NCBI GenBank assembly: GCA_027064085.1
Contig: JAMOQH010000169.1
Span: forward strand, 1-6,123
Direction: 5' to 3'
DNA length: 6,123 nucleotides
Origin: a bacterium
GTDB taxonomy: Bacteria > UBP6 > JAFGXH01
Below are positions 1 through 6,109 of the stretch, one piece after another (the first letter of the stretch is position 1; each line of letters opens with the position of its first letter). A program made the translations under genes and the position numbers. The notes under the pieces are model-generated. The model saw only the letters and a list, made by a program, of their open reading frames with translations. It did no database searches and had not been told where the DNA came from.

Positions 1-121
1 CTGTTAGCTTATAGGTGTAAGCTAGTAAGTTTCTTATTGGCGTTTCACTATTTGTACTAAAGCTTTTTGTTTTTTAAAAACTAGGCTCACTTTAAGCAAG
101 GTGCTTACGATAGACACATAA
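1..121 (-). mobile_element. Start of a further gene cassette (cassette D), truncated by the window edge; no gene seen
   Basis: This is the first ~120 bases of the next cassette, beginning with TTATGTGTC just inside the R' box of the attC at 116-183. No reading frame of useful length opens on either strand: the single minus-strand ATG, at the cassette edge, meets a stop after four codons. Two small hairpins are visible, TAGCTTA/TAAGCTA (5-11 with 18-24, 6-base loop) and TAAGCA/TGCTTA (93-98 with 102-107, 3-base loop), plus an AT-only-core hairpin at 69-81. If this is a cassette, its own attC should contain GACACATAAC on the minus strand; that lies beyond the left edge. The piece could be a long untranslated leader or a gene-less cassette; the sequence does not decide. 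Confidence 0.45.
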
Positions 122-183
122 CGGTTGAAGATAGCCGATAAATTTCCGCTAGGGAATTTATTGGATACTCTGTTTTGTTAGCA
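116..183 (-). other. Integron attC recombination site 1 (end of cassette C)
   Basis: Read on the minus strand, the R'' box TGCTAAC (183-177) is followed by AAAAC and an L'' arm, and the site ends with the R' box GTTATGT (122-116). The arms pair: plus-strand GATAAATTTCC near 137-147 faces GGGAATTTATTGG near 152-164 with small mismatches around a GCTA loop. The minus-strand left arm carries one unpaired G relative to the right arm (AGAGTATCC against AGATAGCC), the kind of extrahelical base that sets attC polarity. At 68 bp it is the shortest site here and starts 3 bases after the stop codon of the 162-aa gene. It shares TAACGGTTGA with attC site 2. Confidence 0.75.
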
Positions 184-697
184 ATTTAGTCAAGTGATTT
201 AACTCTCTCCCATTCTCTTTTTAAAATTAATTGAGATTGAGTTAAAATTTCTGCTTCAATTTCACTTCGATTTTTATCTTTAGTTCTTATATTTTGATAT
301 GCTTCTTCAAGAATTTCAATTAATTTTTTATGGTCATCTTCATTTGGATTAATCAATAAAGAAATTTTAATTTTGTGTTTTTGTAATTCATCAAGTGCTT
401 TTGTTAAATCTTTTGAAGAATGAGGTTTTTCTGCCATATTATTTCCAATGATTGCCTGTGCATTATCAAACCACATACCTTCTAATTTAATGAAACCAAA
501 CAAATAATTAGTAATTTCATCTCTAAGGGTATTTATCCACTCTTGTCGACTTTTTGAATTAACAGAGGCTCGTAATTGTTTTTTAGTTACATAAATACTA
601 ATTAATGGGCTAATCACAACTGCTAACAATGCAGTTATCATTGGTACTATTTTTAAAATAAATTCAGTATCCATTTAATAATTCCTTTTTTTGCTAA
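122..697 (-). mobile_element. Integron gene cassette C (small membrane protein)
   Basis: Cassette bounded by the G^TT crossover points of attC site 2 (697/698) and attC site 1 (121/122), about 576 bp. It starts TTAGCAA and its attC carries TTGCTAAC as R'' box, an exact complement, as expected for one cassette unit. Typical single-gene layout: only 23 bases precede the ATG, with no promoter visible, so expression would depend on read-through from outside the cassette. Confidence 0.75.
186..674 (-). CDS. Cassette-borne hypothetical protein with one N-terminal membrane helix, 162 aa
   Basis: I cannot assign a function. Residues about 5-29 form one hydrophobic helix (FILKIVPMITALLAVVISPLISIYV region), followed by a basic KKQLR stretch. 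The remaining ~130 residues are then expected in the cytoplasm. They are charged and mostly helical, with three segments that look conserved in type: SRQEWINTLRDEI at 42-54, LLINPNEDDHK at 106-116 and a basic-aromatic LKREWERVK end at 151-159. Proteins with this plan (short anchor, then N/S-RQ-W-I-x-x-LRDEI) are, from memory, frequent among uncharacterised cassette and genomic-island genes. The ATG is chosen because AAGGA lies 8-9 bases upstream in the 23-base leader. The stop is 3 bases before attC site 1. A role in defence or membrane sensing is conceivable but not shown. Confidence 0.85.
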   Translation of the reverse strand: MDTEFILKIVPMITALLAVVISPLISIYVTKKQLRASVNSKSRQEWINTLRDEITNYLFGFIKLEGMWFDNAQAIIGNNMAEKPHSSKDLTKALDELQKHKIKISLLINPNEDDHKKLIEILEEAYQNIRTKDKNRSEIEAEILTQSQLILKREWERVKSLD

Positions 698-826
698 CGG
701 TTGAGTACAAAAATATGTTACCTGCTTTTAAGTTTTGAAATGCTTAAATTGCTTTAAAGTTTCTAAACAAATCTAAGCTTTTTTCGGCGATGGGTAACAT
801 ATTTTTGTTGCTACGATTTGTTATAT
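692..826 (-). other. Integron attC recombination site 2 (end of cassette B)
   Basis: Minus strand: R'' box ATATAAC (826-820) followed by AA, then the stem, and R' box GTTAGCA (698-692). The core stem is a perfect 16-bp inverted repeat, 707-722 against 793-808, around a ~70-base AT-rich loop. Beyond the perfect stem the minus-strand left arm is three bases longer than the right arm, giving unpaired bases that set the orientation on the minus strand. Total 135 bp, similar in length to site 3. The R'' box and the following CGTAG resemble those of site 4. Confidence 0.85.
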
Positions 827-1452: not shown

Positions 1453-1534
1453 TGAAAACCTTTAAAATTTAAATTTACCTATTTAAGAAATAGGCATATT
1501 CAAATTTCCAGATAATGTGGCAACTTGGATATAA
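1453..1534 (-). promoter_or_regulatory. Leader of the outer-membrane protein gene with a small hairpin
   Basis: This 82-base leader holds a perfect 7-bp inverted repeat, CCTATTT/AAATAGG (1478-1484 with 1488-1494, 3-base loop), and the palindromic AAATTTAAATTT just before the ribosome site AAAGG. On the minus strand TTGCCA and AATATG are spaced 17 bases apart, only a weak promoter match. The leader is long enough to carry its own promoter, unlike cassette C. Confidence 0.3.
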
Positions 1535-1662
1535 CGACCGACTTGAACTACAAGTGTACCATTGAGGCAGAAGCAATTTGTTTATCTGGAATATAAATAT
1601 TTTCATAATTATTTGAATTACTAGCGATAGGTACACTTGTTAGTTCCAAGGATTTGTTAGGA
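1529..1662 (-). other. Integron attC recombination site 3 (end of cassette A), overlapping the methyltransferase gene
   Basis: Minus strand: R'' box TCCTAAC (1662-1656), then AAATC, and R' box GTTATAT (1535-1529). Plus-strand CTTGAACTACAAGTGTACC (1542-1560) pairs with GGTACACTTGTTAGTTCCAAG (1630-1650). The minus-strand left arm has two additional bases (one in CTTGG, one in CTAAC) that would be extrahelical, a textbook attC feature, and they orient the site on the minus strand. The loop of about 69 bases is coding. The methyltransferase stop codon (1548-1550) lies within the right arm, so the reading frame covers most of the site. Confidence 0.9.
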
Positions 1663-2648
1663 TAAATACTGCTTAAATCTTCAATTATTCTTTTTGCTAA
1701 ATAATATGCAAGATTTGGTGGTACCGCATTTCCTACCATTTTATAACCAGCACTTAAATTATTATAATAAAATTTATGACTATCTGGAAATGTTTGTATT
1801 CTTGCACATTCTCTAATACTTAATCTTCTATATAAATGTTCACTACCTTTTACAAATATTCTTTTATCTTTTTCCACAAACTCCATTTTTGGAGCTTGTG
1901 GATGTAGTGGTGCATGTCTTCCACCTGCTTGAATTGTAAATGATGGTTCATCCCAATTTCTTACTCTATTTCTTGACATAAACATTGATGAAAATCCACC
2001 TGTCATATATTCATGATTAGGGATATTACAATTATTACCATTCGTATAATTTTTATCTTTAGCTGATAAAACATTATCTTTTAAATCCCAAATTACATCT
2101 TTTAAAAATCTCTTTTTTGAAAAGCTTTTTGGGAATTTAAAATTCATATTTAAATCTTTTCTGTATCCAATAAAAAATATTCGTTTTCTATCTTGTGGCA
2201 CTTTATAATCATGAGCATTTAAAAGTTTGAAAGATAAATTGTATCCACTATCAATAAAATGATTTTTAATATTTTCAAGTGCTTCGCTATGTCTATTAGC
2301 TAACATACCAGAAACATTTTCAGCTAAAAAAAATAAAGGTTTTTTATCTTTTAAAACTCTAATAAACTCAAAAAACAACTGCCCCCTATGGTCTTGTATA
2401 CCCCTTGATTTACCTGCTTCACTCCAACTTTGACATGGCGGGCCACCAATTAGCCCTAAAGTTTCTGGGATTTCATCTGATGGAATTTTCGAAATACTTC
2501 TTCTGTCTAAAATTGTATTTGGAAAATTCTTTTCAAATGTTTCCCAAATTTCTTTATCATATTCATTTGCCCAAATAGTTTTAAAACCAGCTTTTTCAAA
2601 ACCTAGGTCTAATCCACCTGCACCTGAAAATAAAGATATTATATTCAT
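1548..2648 (-). CDS. Type II DNA (cytosine-5) methyltransferase, HaeIII/NgoPII-like (predicted GGCC), 366 aa
   Basis: Transfers a methyl group from S-adenosylmethionine to carbon 5 of cytosine, protecting host DNA from the endonuclease encoded just upstream. The C5 motifs appear in order: SAM-binding [15 protein letters not shown] (7-21), catalytic GGPPCQS with Cys72, ENV (110-112), QDRKR (152-156), a target-recognition region about 190-270 with [17 protein letters not shown] (279-288) and GNAVPPN (306-312). The body strongly resembles M.HaeIII and M.NgoPII as I recall them, both GGCC enzymes. Those have the segment SGRQCQLHPQAP where this protein has [12 protein letters not shown], so specificity is inferred. 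The start fits the family N-terminus (MNIISLFSG), with AAGG about 11 bases upstream inside the preceding gene. About 38 residues from 329 onward are encoded by attC site 3 and exceed the usual family length of 330-340. Confidence 0.95.
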
Positions 2649-2652
2649 AAAA

Positions 2653-3498
2653 TTAAACCTTAAAAGTTAATAGTTTTGCATCTATTAATTGAACTGGATT
2701 ATTTGGATTTTTAATTATTATATCTTGAACTTCTATATTGTTATTATTTATATTTTCAATAGCTTTTTTATCTTCAGTAGGTAGAGATTCATATTTTTCT
2801 TTTTTCATTAAACATGCTAACTGAAAAATTTTTGTATCATCAAAGCTATAAATATAATTAAAAACTTTATTTGGATTATCAATATGCCACATACCTCTAA
2901 TTCTTAAATCTGTAATACCTAATGGATCAACTTTTTTAACTTTTCCTAACTCTTTTGTTTGAGTAAACTCTACATCTTCTATTGTAGTTATTCCATCCGA
3001 AATGGTATTTTTAATTCTTTCATAAGTTTCTTTATCTGCACAAAAACAATCCCCATAAACTAACCATAATGATTTTAAAATTGAATTATCTACATAACCA
3101 ATAGCATAAAGCATATCTTTTATAGTCCATTCTTCACATTCTCTACAAGCTTTAGTTATCATTGGACTATTAGCATAAAGTTTTGCTTTTGGATATGAAC
3201 TATTTAATGCTATTGCACTATTTTTTGATTCTAATTTTTTAATCTCTATTGCATCACTATTTCTTATCATTAAATCAGGTGGATTATTTTTATTTCCTTG
3301 ATAAGAATAAATTTTTGATAGTTTTTCTAATTTGACTTGTTCATTAGTTTCATTTGTAGTATTTGCAAAAATATCTTTAATATAAGTTTCTAATCCTTCA
3401 CCCATATTATTTGCTCTATTATTACCTTGTGTCACATTAGTTATATTAACTTGATAATGATTTACTATATTTATAAATGCTTTAATTATGTTTGACAT
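2653..3498 (-). CDS. Type II restriction endonuclease, NgoPII family (predicted GGCC), 281 aa
   Basis: Predicted to cleave unmodified double-stranded GGCC sites. The protein has a PD-(D/E)XK active site: PD at 74-75, then Glu85 and Lys87 in DAIEIKK. The N-terminal [17 protein letters not shown] segment (26-42), the NPPD element, and [13 protein letters not shown] (95-107) match my memory of R.NgoPII (about 278 aa), so length and start agree with that family. A cluster of cysteines (C118, C121, C151, C153) could be structural. The ATG has AAGGA about 8 bases upstream. The gene begins 11 bases after the NACHT gene and stops 4 bases before its cognate methyltransferase, so the two are probably translationally linked. 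The endonuclease precedes the methyltransferase and no controller (C) protein gene is present, which leaves open how the host is protected when the cassette first arrives. Confidence 0.9.
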
Positions 3499-3509
3499 AT
3501 TTTTATTCC

Positions 3510-5939
3510 TTAATGTTTAGATAACTCTCGTTTTAAGTTTTTGAAAGAGTTCTTTTTTACTGTTAAAATACTTTGAAATATATCTGGAAAATTTTTTTTA
3601 TATTTATTTATTAATTTTTTAATACTTTTATCAAGTTCATCATCTAATTCAATTCGACCTTTTTTATCAAAAAAAGATATTAACATCGTTAAAAGTACTT
3701 TATTCTCTAATTCCTTTATATTTTGGATTAATGGTACTATTTTTTTTAAACTACTATTGATAAACTTTTTATCCAATGAAGCTGAGTTTTTTAGTATGTA
3801 AATTGTAGAAAAATAAAGTTTATTTTCATTATCATCAATATTATTTATTAATTTTTTTGTTTCATTTCTTAAAAAAGTACTTGAATAGCATAAGTCAATC
3901 ATATTAAACATACTAATACTACTTAAAATATGTGGAACTTCCATATTTAGACTATCTTTAAAAATTTTATGAAAATTTTCTTTTAAATCAAGTGACATTA
4001 ACATAGCAGTTTCAATAATATTTTCTTTAAAATTACTATCAGTCATCCAAGCATATTGAACTAATCTTCCCAAGTAAAATTTATTTAAATTTTTATCAAA
4101 TTGATTGTCAAGCTTTTCAATACTTTTTTGTAATTTATTATATTCACTTTTTATAATTTTACCTTTTAGTCCAAAGTAAAAAAAGACTACTTCTTCCCAT
4201 TGTTCAATAAAACTATATAATGAAAATAATTCATCAAACTTATCTTCTTCTATTAACTCTTCTTTATTTTCTTTGAAATAATTTGCAATAAAAAAATCTA
4301 AAAATGATTTATGTGAAAAATAAACTTCACTATTCTCTATTTTTAAAATACTAACTCTTTTGATATTTTCTATAAAATTTTCTTTATTTGTTATTACTGA
4401 AGAATGTTTTTTAGTAAATATATCTACAAATTTTATAAATTCATTATAGCTAATTTTTACCTTATTTTTTAGAAAAAATATTTCATATGATAAATTTGCA
4501 AAAAATTCTTTTTTAATTTTTGGTTCAAATAATTTATCAATTTCTGTACTAATTTCAAACTCTCCAAACATAATTCCAATATATTTATTATAAAGCTCTG
4601 TTATTGAAGCAGGTATTTCGTTATGTTTTTCAACTACTTCAATTAATAATCTTAAAGCCAAAGGATAAAAAGGTATTTGTCCTTCTAATTCAGAAATACT
4701 TTTTTCTAAATTATTAACTAAAATACTTTGTTTCTCAGCTATTTTTTTTATAAAATCTATTGCCTGTTTTGTTTCATATGGCATAAGTTCATAATGCACA
4801 TATTCATCAAATTCTTCCAATATTGTAAAATTTGTTCTTGAAGAAAAAACAATTGTTATTTCTTTATTCTTTAGTATTACATAAGATTCTATTTTTTCTT
4901 TAATTAAAAGTCTACTATTTTTATCAATTTCATCTATTCCATCAATAATAATTGTTCTAATAGTGTTGTCTTTTGATGATGAATAAAATTCTTCTAATAT
5001 AATTTCAATATTTTCAATATTATCTTTTATATCAATCGCCCTCAAGCTTACAGGAAAAGAAAAATCACTTTCCTCTCTAATTGAATTTATATTATTTTGT
5101 TTTAAAAATTTATTTATAAATTCTAAAATTATCTTAAATAATAATACAGACTTTCCAGAACCTGCTTCACCAGTTAAAATTATTTTTTGATATTTTTTTT
5201 CAGTAATTAACTCTAAAAATGATTGAAAATTCTCTCTATGACCAAATAGTTGTTCACTTATTAGTTTTAAATCATTTTTTGAATTTTGCTGAACGAGTAA
5301 CTCCTTTTTTGTTTTATTAAATCTTTTTATGTAAGGTTCTATAAAATATTTTAATTTTTTATCTTCAACTAAAAACTTTTCTATTTTTTCAACTCTATTT
5401 TTGAAAAATAGTTGTAAATCTTCATTAAAATAAAATTCTGGATAATGTTCTTCAAATAATTTTATTAAATCTTCAATAGCAAAATAATCCACATTATTCT
5501 TATAATTAACAAGTAATGGATCAAGTATTTTTCTTTTAGCCCCATCAGATATTGTTCCAGTATTTACTATATATACTTTTGATATAGTAACTTCTTCATG
5601 AATGTCTTGTAATTGAGCTTTTGTCATAAAAGCTTGTTGAACTTGAGTTGATATTTCAGCAGTTTTACTAACTGCAGAACCAGATAATTTTTCAACTGCT
5701 TTTACAACGAAAGCTATATGTTCATAATTACCAAAATTATCTTTCGTTCTAACAACAATATCTTTTCCTTTTTCTTCTGCACCCTGTAATATTTCAATAT
5801 AAGAATTAGGATATATTATTTCTAATAGTTTTTTTAACTCATAATGAAATTTATTCTCTTTACCAATGTAAGACTTTATTATATCTCTTTTTGTACTATA
5901 AAGTAAATCTTTAGCTTTTAATTGAAAATCTTTTAACAT
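3510..5939 (-). CDS. NACHT-type STAND NTPase with N-terminal PD-(D/E)XK-like domain, probable anti-phage protein, 809 aa
   Basis: A large signal-transducing ATPase expected in the cytoplasm. Residues about 30-105 look like a restriction-endonuclease fold: helix with Glu34, GKDIVV with Asp60, then AFVVKA with Lys80 and a following helix with STQVQQAF (98-104). The acidic or Gln residue usual two positions before the lysine is Val78, so the active site is atypical or dead. The NACHT core follows: Walker A GEAGSGKS (257-264), Walker B IIIDGIDEID (330-339) with the doubled acidic residues of NACHT proteins, a sensor arginine in FSSRTN (Arg368), and the downstream SHKSFLDFFIANYF signature (542-555). 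Residues 560-809 are helical, lysine-rich and without obvious repeats; such C-terminal regions usually sense the trigger. Bacterial NACHT proteins are known anti-phage systems. SD AGGA lies 7 bases before the ATG. Confidence 0.9.
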   Translation of the reverse strand: MLKDFQLKAKDLLYSTKRDIIKSYIGKENKFHYELKKLLEIIYPNSYIEILQGAEEKGKDIVVRTKDNFGNYEHIAFVVKAVEKLSGSAVSKTAEISTQVQQAFMTKAQLQDIHEEVTISKVYIVNTGTISDGAKRKILDPLLVNYKNNVDYFAIEDLIKLFEEHYPEFYFNEDLQLFFKNRVEKIEKFLVEDKKLKYFIEPYIKRFNKTKKELLVQQNSKNDLKLISEQLFGHRENFQSFLELITEKKYQKIILTGEAGSGKSVLLFKIILEFINKFLKQNNINSIREESDFSFPVSLRAIDIKDNIENIEIILEEFYSSSKDNTIRTIIIDGIDEIDKNSRLLIKEKIESYVILKNKEITIVFSSRTNFTILEEFDEYVHYELMPYETKQAIDFIKKIAEKQSILVNNLEKSISELEGQIPFYPLALRLLIEVVEKHNEIPASITELYNKYIGIMFGEFEISTEIDKLFEPKIKKEFFANLSYEIFFLKNKVKISYNEFIKFVDIFTKKHSSVITNKENFIENIKRVSILKIENSEVYFSHKSFLDFFIANYFKENKEELIEEDKFDELFSLYSFIEQWEEVVFFYFGLKGKIIKSEYNKLQKSIEKLDNQFDKNLNKFYLGRLVQYAWMTDSNFKENIIETAMLMSLDLKENFHKIFKDSLNMEVPHILSSISMFNMIDLCYSSTFLRNETKKLINNIDDNENKLYFSTIYILKNSASLDKKFINSSLKKIVPLIQNIKELENKVLLTMLISFFDKKGRIELDDELDKSIKKLINKYKKNFPDIFQSILTVKKNSFKNLKRELSKH

Positions 5940-6019
5940 TTATTATTCCTAATTTTATTATATATTGTACTAAACAAATTTAATAAACTTACTTAAGTAA
6001 ATATAACTACTTATCCTAA
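5940..6019 (-). promoter_or_regulatory. Leader and possible promoter of the NACHT/restriction-modification operon
   Basis: This 80-base, very AT-rich stretch is the only upstream region inside cassette A. On the minus strand it has a perfect TATAAT (5962-5957) and an overlapping TACAAT just before it. No good -35 box stands 16-18 bases upstream, though some AT-rich bacteria use -10 boxes with weak -35 elements. With TATAAT the transcript would start near 5950, placing the AGGA ribosome site (5950-5947) almost at the 5' end; TACAAT would leave slightly more room. Upstream lies a perfect 12-bp palindrome, listed separately. Confidence 0.4.
5989..6000. promoter_or_regulatory. Perfect 12-bp palindrome, possible operator
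   Basis: TTACTTAAGTAA is identical on both strands and sits about 27 bases upstream of the candidate -10 box of the NACHT/restriction-modification operon, inside the cassette. The position suits a binding site for a dimeric regulator. AT-rich palindromes of this size can occur by chance, and no regulator is encoded in the window. Confidence 0.25.
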
Positions 6020-6109
6020 CTATTAGTTAATCAACATTTTAGCACCAACCACATTAATCCATCATAAATAATTCTAATGCTAAAATGTTGTTTCTACGCC
6101 TTGTTATAT
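6014..6109 (-). other. Integron attC recombination site 4 (end of the upstream cassette)
   Basis: Minus strand: R'' box ATATAAC (6109-6103), then AAGGCGTAG, and R' box GTTAGGA (6020-6014). The core stem is a perfect 13-bp repeat, CAACATTTTAGCA (6032-6044) with TGCTAAAATGTTG (6078-6090), around a 33-base loop. The minus-strand left arm is one base longer than the right. The R'' box implies that the unseen upstream cassette begins TTATAT. The 14 bases to its right (6110-6123) would be the tail of that cassette; nothing can be read in them. Confidence 0.85.

What the first reader, a model, noticed from the sequence alone, without database searches (positions are those of the whole stretch)
5640..5860. 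Atypical nuclease active site on the NACHT effector domain
The N-terminal domain has the layout of a PD-(D/E)XK fold (Glu34, Asp60 in GKD, Lys80), but the position that is normally Glu, Asp or Gln before the lysine is Val78. I recall similar GAEEKGKD...AFVVK domains in other uncharacterised STAND-type proteins, suggesting a conserved variant family rather than a decayed nuclease. It may use a displaced acidic residue or may only bind nucleic acid.
Basis: partly seen in the sequence, partly recalled or inferred. Interest (0 to 1): 0.6.

Follow-up and report, generated by a model that had tools for sequence, protein, structure and literature searches.

The report
Mrr-like DNase on a NACHT protein
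The protein is a bacterial immune sensor of the NACHT (NLR-like) kind whose front end is a DNA-cutting domain with a slightly unusual active site; the same arrangement is present in bNACHT25, an E. coli anti-phage protein whose DNA-degrading activity has been shown, so the site is very probably working rather than broken.

Summary
In detail: the first ~185 residues of an 809-aa NACHT protein (3510-5939, minus) carry D60 and K80, with Val78 where PD-(D/E)XK enzymes have Asp/Glu (Gln in Mrr). It is a conserved variant. Eleven homologous N-terminal domains, from Campylobacterota to Deinococcus, all keep D60 and K80; position 78 is Val (8), Ile (2) or Gln (1). The key relative is bNACHT25 (WP_001702659.1): its effector aligns over 151 columns (hhalign E 4e-16), its Ile-x-Lys matches Val-x-Lys, and its D48 equals D60. 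Published work shows D48A abolishes phage defence and infection-triggered DNA degradation. So a hydrophobic-x-K site occurs in an active DNase. The effector is under purifying selection (dN/dS 0.06-0.24). Corrections: Glu34 and Gln101 are not conserved; Glu28, Glu56 and Gln99 are. 'May only bind nucleic acid' is unlikely. The missing carboxylate may come from E95 (E/D in 9 of 11), E56 or E28; untested. It is not a strict bNACHT clade-6 member: its C-terminal region shows no similarity to NCH1. It shares an operon with an NgoPII-type restriction-modification pair, apparently one integron cassette. Verdict: new member of a known kind, with a testable active-site question.

The parts
5385..5939 (-). 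N-terminal effector domain, residues 1-~185 of the NACHT protein (Mrr-like nuclease)
   Evidence: hhalign 98.7% / E 4e-16 to the bNACHT25 group over 151 columns; Pfam Mrr_cat hits in 6 of 11 homologous domains; predicted order alpha-beta-beta-alpha-beta, low confidence
5856..5858 (-). Glu28, conserved motif-I-like Glu in helix A (invariant in 11, although the alignment needs a 1-5 residue gap in four of them)
5772..5774 (-). Glu56 of G53-x-x-E56-x-G58-x-D60, invariant; corresponds to the first Asp of GDGGID in E. coli Mrr
5760..5762 (-). Asp60, motif II metal ligand; = D48 of bNACHT25, essential there
   Evidence: PMC12169576
5706..5708 (-). Val78, the motif III position (V8/I2/Q1 in homologues; Gln in E. 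coli Mrr)
5700..5702 (-). Lys80, motif III lysine, invariant
5655..5657 (-). Glu95, motif IV helix; candidate displaced carboxylate (E8/D1/T2)
5643..5645 (-).
4260..5270 (-). NACHT module (residues ~224-560): Walker A GEAGSGKS 257-264, Walker B IIIDGIDE
   Evidence: Pfam NACHT 27.2 bits over the cut-off of 26.7
4311..4313 (-). His543, equivalent of bNACHT25 H506 (H506L is hyperactive)
   Evidence: BLASTP register; invariant in 7 proteins; PMC12169576
3513..4172 (-). C-terminal sensor region (residues ~590-809), no detectable NCH1
3510..5939 (-). NACHT protein, 809 aa
2653..3498 (-). NgoPII-type restriction endonuclease, same operon (11-bp gap)
   Evidence: Pfam RE_NgoPII E 2e-125
1548..2648 (-). 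C5-cytosine DNA methyltransferase, same operon (4-bp gap)
   Evidence: Pfam DNA_methylase E 2e-97
6017..6105 (-). attC-like integron site upstream of the NACHT gene
   Evidence: TATAACAA...GTTAGG with a long hairpin; 0.0 expected in shuffles; fold z -3.3 to -3.8
695..822 (-). second attC-like site, after the outer-membrane-protein gene

Best explanation
The domain is an Mrr-like DNase effector of a bacterial NACHT (NLR-like) immune protein. Shown here: it is homologous to the effector of bNACHT25, with D60 = D48 and K80 = K69, and the residue two before the lysine is hydrophobic in both. Shown by others: bNACHT25 degrades DNA on phage infection, needs D48, and is switched on by H506L in its NACHT module (His543 here). 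Inferred: in the resting protein the NACHT module holds the nuclease inactive; a cue at the C-terminal region releases it, it oligomerises, and the nuclease cuts DNA and stops the infected cell. Inferred, less certain: D60 binds the metal, K80 activates water, and the missing motif III carboxylate is supplied from elsewhere, most simply E95 in the following helix (the PD-XXK-E arrangement known from Cfr10I/NgoMIV), with E56, E28 and Q99 as other candidates. The Val/Ile is a further step from Mrr-type Q-x-K.
For: Locus L035 holds WP_001702659.1, the accession given for bNACHT25. Whole-protein BLASTP 24% over 693 aa, E 2e-29; effector-only hhalign E 4e-16 with D and K in register. D48A abolishes defence and DNA degradation (PMC12169576); H506L hyperactive. 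Position 78 is V/I in 10 of 11, Q in Deinococcus, Q in E. coli Mrr at the same register. Pfam Mrr_cat matches 6 of 11 domains, best 3e-6, and one over the cut-off in a whole protein. dN/dS of the effector 0.06-0.24. Model topology and REase-dominated fold matches. PD-XXK-E precedent in PMC551604.
Against: No activity has been measured for this protein. Only D48 mutants of bNACHT25 are described in the paper read, not its Lys, Ile or helix Glu. The window domain itself has no Pfam Mrr_cat hit. The AF2 model is poor (pLDDT 53) and its best structural matches are in or near the null range (Z at most 8.1). E95 is Thr in two homologues that also have V-x-K (L029, L076), so E95 cannot be the universal substitute. 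Direct hhalign to E. coli Mrr alone is not significant (E 0.085).
Confidence: 0.82

Rival explanations
1. A degenerate REase fold that no longer cuts but binds nucleic acid or a partner, acting as a sensor or oligomerisation part (like families named NACHT-associated inactive REase).
For: No acid at motif III; one of 11 members has a marginal hit to Pfam NA-iREase1 (E 0.1).
Against: D60, K80, E56 and Q99 are invariant; purifying selection; bNACHT25 with I-x-K is an active, D48-dependent DNase.
Confidence: 0.1
2. The nuclease acts on RNA rather than DNA.
For: Some REase-fold domains in immune systems cut RNA (general knowledge); bNACHT25 defends against RNA phages.
Against: For bNACHT25 the measured outcome is plasmid DNA degradation, ablated by D48A.
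Confidence: 0.06
3. The NACHT protein is a guard of the adjacent restriction-modification system: inhibition of the R-M enzymes by a phage triggers the DNase. (Concerns the trigger; compatible with the DNase reading.)
For: NACHT, REase and MTase form one tight operon, conserved in three genomes (window, L003, L024).
Against: Related NACHT genes in Campylobacter-like genomes and on the Malaciobacter plasmid stand without the R-M genes; the three operon copies are close relatives (87%), so co-inheritance is enough.
Confidence: 0.08

Closest known systems
bNACHT25 / bNACHT32 (bNACHT clade 6; E. coli WP_001702659.1, PMC12169576)
   Same: Homologous N-terminal DNase with Asp and hydrophobic-x-Lys in register; NACHT module with the regulatory His; order effector-NACHT-sensor.
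   Different: 24% identity; C-terminal NCH1 domain of bNACHT25 not detected here; a 5-residue longer loop after the Lys; R-M operon and apparent integron-cassette setting here, prophage setting there.
Mrr / Pfam Mrr_cat type IV restriction endonuclease (E. coli Mrr)
   Same: FxxxxLxxLL-type helix, (D/E)xGxD loop, lysine at the same register, similar C-terminal strand-helix elements.
   Different: Gln-x-Lys in Mrr, Val-x-Lys here; Glu of 'FE' in Mrr is His32 here, with Glu28 upstream; Mrr has an N-terminal domain instead of NACHT.
Cfr10I / NgoMIV-type restriction enzymes (PD-XXK-E; PMC551604)
   Same: No acid two before the lysine; a Glu in the following helix (K+15 here; K+10 in bNACHT25).
   Different: There the relocated carboxylate is part of the described active site; here the helix Glu is Thr in 2 of 11 homologues and untested.
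Avs4 nuclease domain (PDB 8dgf)
   Same: N-terminal domain of a STAND defence protein; weak structural match (Z 6.7, 135 residues, 3.5 A).
   Different: No sequence similarity found; STAND protein of another family.

Membership tests
[quoted passage not shown]
   AF2 pLDDT 53, secondary structure order fits, first core strand not clearly formed; fold matches mostly REases but Z at most 8.1
PD-(D/E)XK nuclease superfamily | Motif II Asp and motif III Lys conserved | tested here: met
   D60 and K80 invariant in 11 homologues
PD-(D/E)XK nuclease superfamily | Acid (Asp/Glu) two residues before the Lys | tested here: not met
   Val in the window; V8/I2/Q1 in homologues
Mrr-like nucleases (Pfam Mrr_cat) | Match to the Mrr_cat profile | tested here: inconclusive
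   No hit for the window domain; 6 of 11 homologous domains hit, best E 2.9e-6; one whole protein over the cut-off
Mrr-like nucleases (Pfam Mrr_cat) | Gln-x-Lys motif III | tested here: not met
   Val-x-Lys here; Gln-x-Lys only in the Deinococcus homologue L032 and in E. coli Mrr
bNACHT proteins (bacterial NLR-related) | Central NACHT module | tested here: met
   Pfam NACHT over the cut-off
bNACHT clade 6 (bNACHT25/32) | N-terminal PD-(D/E)XK-type DNase of the bNACHT25 kind | tested here: met
   hhalign E 4e-16 over 151 columns
bNACHT clade 6 (bNACHT25/32) | C-terminal NCH1 domain | tested here: not met
   No Pfam NCH1; profile comparison of C-terminal regions finds nothing
bNACHT clade 6 (bNACHT25/32) | Phage defence and Asp-dependent DNA degradation | not testable with these tools
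   Needs an experiment
Integron gene cassette | attC sites bounding the gene(s) | tested here: inconclusive
   Two attC-like sites on the minus strand against 0.0 in shuffles; boundaries shared with L003, different flanks; but the site directly after the MTase gene is weak and the strong one lies beyond the OMP gene
Integron gene cassette | Integron integrase in the same element | tested here: inconclusive
   None on this 6-kb contig and none over the cut-off in G000; a true IntI in G038

The most novel reading that the evidence does not exclude
The bNACHT25-type effector is its own class of REase active site: no acid at motif III, and in some members none at motif IV either, so that metal binding rests on D60 with E56 of the same loop and/or E28 of helix A, with Gln99 as an essential polar residue; a catalytic arrangement not described for Mrr or for PD-XXK-E enzymes.
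Probability: 0.3. Interest if true: 0.5.

Novelty: new member of a known kind. Interest (0 to 1): 0.38.

Why it matters
It turns an apparent 'broken' nuclease into a defined, testable question: how a proven immune DNase family (bNACHT25-like) cuts DNA without the acidic residue taken as a hallmark of its fold. Annotation rules that call such domains inactive because motif III lacks an acid would misjudge them. It also extends the bNACHT25-type effector to Campylobacterota, Thermodesulfobacteriota and Deinococcota proteins, with a different sensor end, and places one copy with a restriction-modification pair in an apparent integron cassette.

Tried and rejected
E95 as the universal displaced carboxylate: weakened, Thr in L029 and L076. 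Sequence search of PDB with the protein, with the domain profile and with bNACHT25: nothing meaningful. PADLOC and NCBIfam: only weak ATPase-region hits for the NACHT protein. Viral-contig scans with the window domain, the Campylobacterota profile, the Deinococcus, Pseudomonas and Campylobacter-like domains: no relatives; with the bNACHT25 domain: only near-identical prophage copies. Phage genomes: none. AF2 of the bNACHT25 domain: too poor to use (pLDDT 40). The structure job could use only the window, L003 and viral-contig sequences, so the alignment was shallow. E. coli Mrr itself does not appear in the fold lists, which with this model says little. Weak hits in G344 and three others (E about 5e-4) were judged chance. 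A one-mismatch attC-like motif in G000 contig 156 lies inside a coding gene and is chance. A NACHT-R-M guard mechanism was considered; kept only as a low-probability rival.

Full report
What was checked. The finding points at residues 27-100 of an 809-aa protein encoded on the minus strand at 3510-5939. Pfam recognises the central NACHT module but nothing in the first 200 residues of this protein.

Relatives. The gene is rare: in a sample of 397 Campylobacterota genomes the domain was found clearly in six. Close copies (86-87%) lie in a Nautiliales MAG (L003) and in G038 (L024), each followed by the same NgoPII-type restriction endonuclease and C5 methyltransferase; more distant ones (48%) in three Campylobacter-like genomes and (34-36%) on the Malaciobacter mytili plasmid pAMYT, without those genes. 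Plasmid searches added NACHT-type proteins from Desulfosarcina, Enterobacter, Pseudomonas and Deinococcus. A profile search of the window's own phylum added one protein, in G010, with the same N-terminal domain but, as far as its sequence shows, no NACHT.

The decisive relative. The Enterobacter protein led to an E. coli prophage gene whose protein accession, WP_001702659.1, is the one given for bNACHT25 (PMC12169576). The window protein and bNACHT25 align along most of their length (24% over 693 aa, E 2e-29). The two effector groups align over 151 columns at hhalign E 4e-16. D60 falls on D48 and K80 on K69; Val78 falls on Ile67. That paper reports that D48A abolishes phage defence and the DNA degradation seen on infection, and that H506L in the NACHT module makes the protein hyperactive; H506 is His543 here, invariant in the seven proteins compared. 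A hydrophobic-x-Lys site is therefore found in an experimentally active DNase.

The active site. In an 11-domain alignment the invariant columns are E28, L38, G53, E56, G58, D60, K80, Q99 and A134. The residue two before the lysine is Val in eight, Ile in two (bNACHT25 and Pseudomonas) and Gln in the Deinococcus protein, which is what E. coli Mrr has at that register. Six of eleven domains in the first such alignment match Pfam Mrr_cat, and one whole protein exceeds its cut-off. The parsimonious reading is an Mrr-like domain in which the Gln of Q-x-K has become Val or Ile. Invariance of E28 depends on a small gap in helix A for four of the sequences.

Which residue replaces the missing carboxylate is not settled. 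E95 lies at the start of the next helix (motif IV), comparable to the relocated carboxylate of the PD-XXK-E arrangement in Cfr10I and NgoMIV (PMC551604). It is Glu or Asp in nine of eleven but Thr in two that also have V-x-K. E56, four residues before D60 and matching the first Asp of GDGGID in Mrr, is invariant, as is Q99.

Not decay. Pairwise dN/dS of the effector region is 0.06-0.24, similar to the NACHT region.

Structure. A shallow-alignment AlphaFold2 model has mean pLDDT 53. Its element order fits an REase core, and the best structural matches are dominated by restriction endonucleases (MspJI, FokI, N.BspD6I) and include AF1548 and the N-terminal domain of Avs4, but with Z at most 8.1 this alone would not be convincing.

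What it is not. It is not filed as bNACHT clade 6, because the C-terminal NCH1 domain of that clade was not found by Pfam or by profile comparison. It is a NACHT protein with the clade-6 type of effector and a different sensor end.

Setting. On the minus strand two attC-like sites lie at 6105-6017 and 822-695, none expected in shuffles. The copy in L003 shares the cassette ends (TAGTTAGGATAA and TAGTTCAAGTCGGKCGTTAT) with different flanks. NACHT, endonuclease and methyltransferase therefore appear to travel as one cassette of about 4.5 kb, although the attC right after the methyltransferase is weak. The contig is only 6.1 kb, no integrase over the cut-off was found in G000, and the contig may be misbinned or recently transferred, since its close relatives are in Campylobacterota while G000 was placed in another, smaller phylum group.

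Mechanism and confidence. Most likely (0.82) the domain is an active DNase held in check by the NACHT module and released on a phage cue. The trigger, the oligomer and the catalytic carboxylate are inferred, not shown.

Noticed in passing
window 695-822, 6017-6105 and about 118-182 (-): attC-like integron sites; the window reads as an integron cassette array carrying NACHT-R-M, an outer-membrane beta-barrel gene and a small membrane-anchored protein of unknown function.
   Followed up: partly
window 1520-1575 (-): The 3' boundary of the NACHT-R-M cassette (TAGTTCAAGTCGGTCGTTAT) is shared with L003 but forms only a short weak hairpin, so its attC may overlap the end of the methyltransferase gene.
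   Followed up: partly
window 1548-3498 (-): Complete NgoPII-type restriction-modification pair in the same operon as the NACHT gene, also in L003 and L024.
   Followed up: partly
L024 7500-11883: The NACHT-R-M set sits inside what looks like a hydrogenase maturation (hyp) operon in G038; the same genome has a true integron integrase on another contig, without a detected cassette array.
   Followed up: partly
L025 6895-13018 (also L026, L027): In Campylobacter-like genomes the NACHT gene lies next to a short ComM-like gene (295 aa) and a protein with a TnsE C-terminal domain plus a pentapeptide-repeat protein, suggesting a Tn7-like or comM-targeting island.
   Followed up: no
L076 1501-2844: A 447-aa protein in G010 (same phylum group as the window's genome) has the same nuclease domain (V-A-K site) fused to an apparently non-NACHT C-terminus.
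   Followed up: no
window, whole contig C169 of G000: Close relatives of the window's genes are in Campylobacterota although G000 is grouped in another phylum; the contig may be misbinned or recently transferred. GC (26%) does not discriminate.
   Followed up: partly
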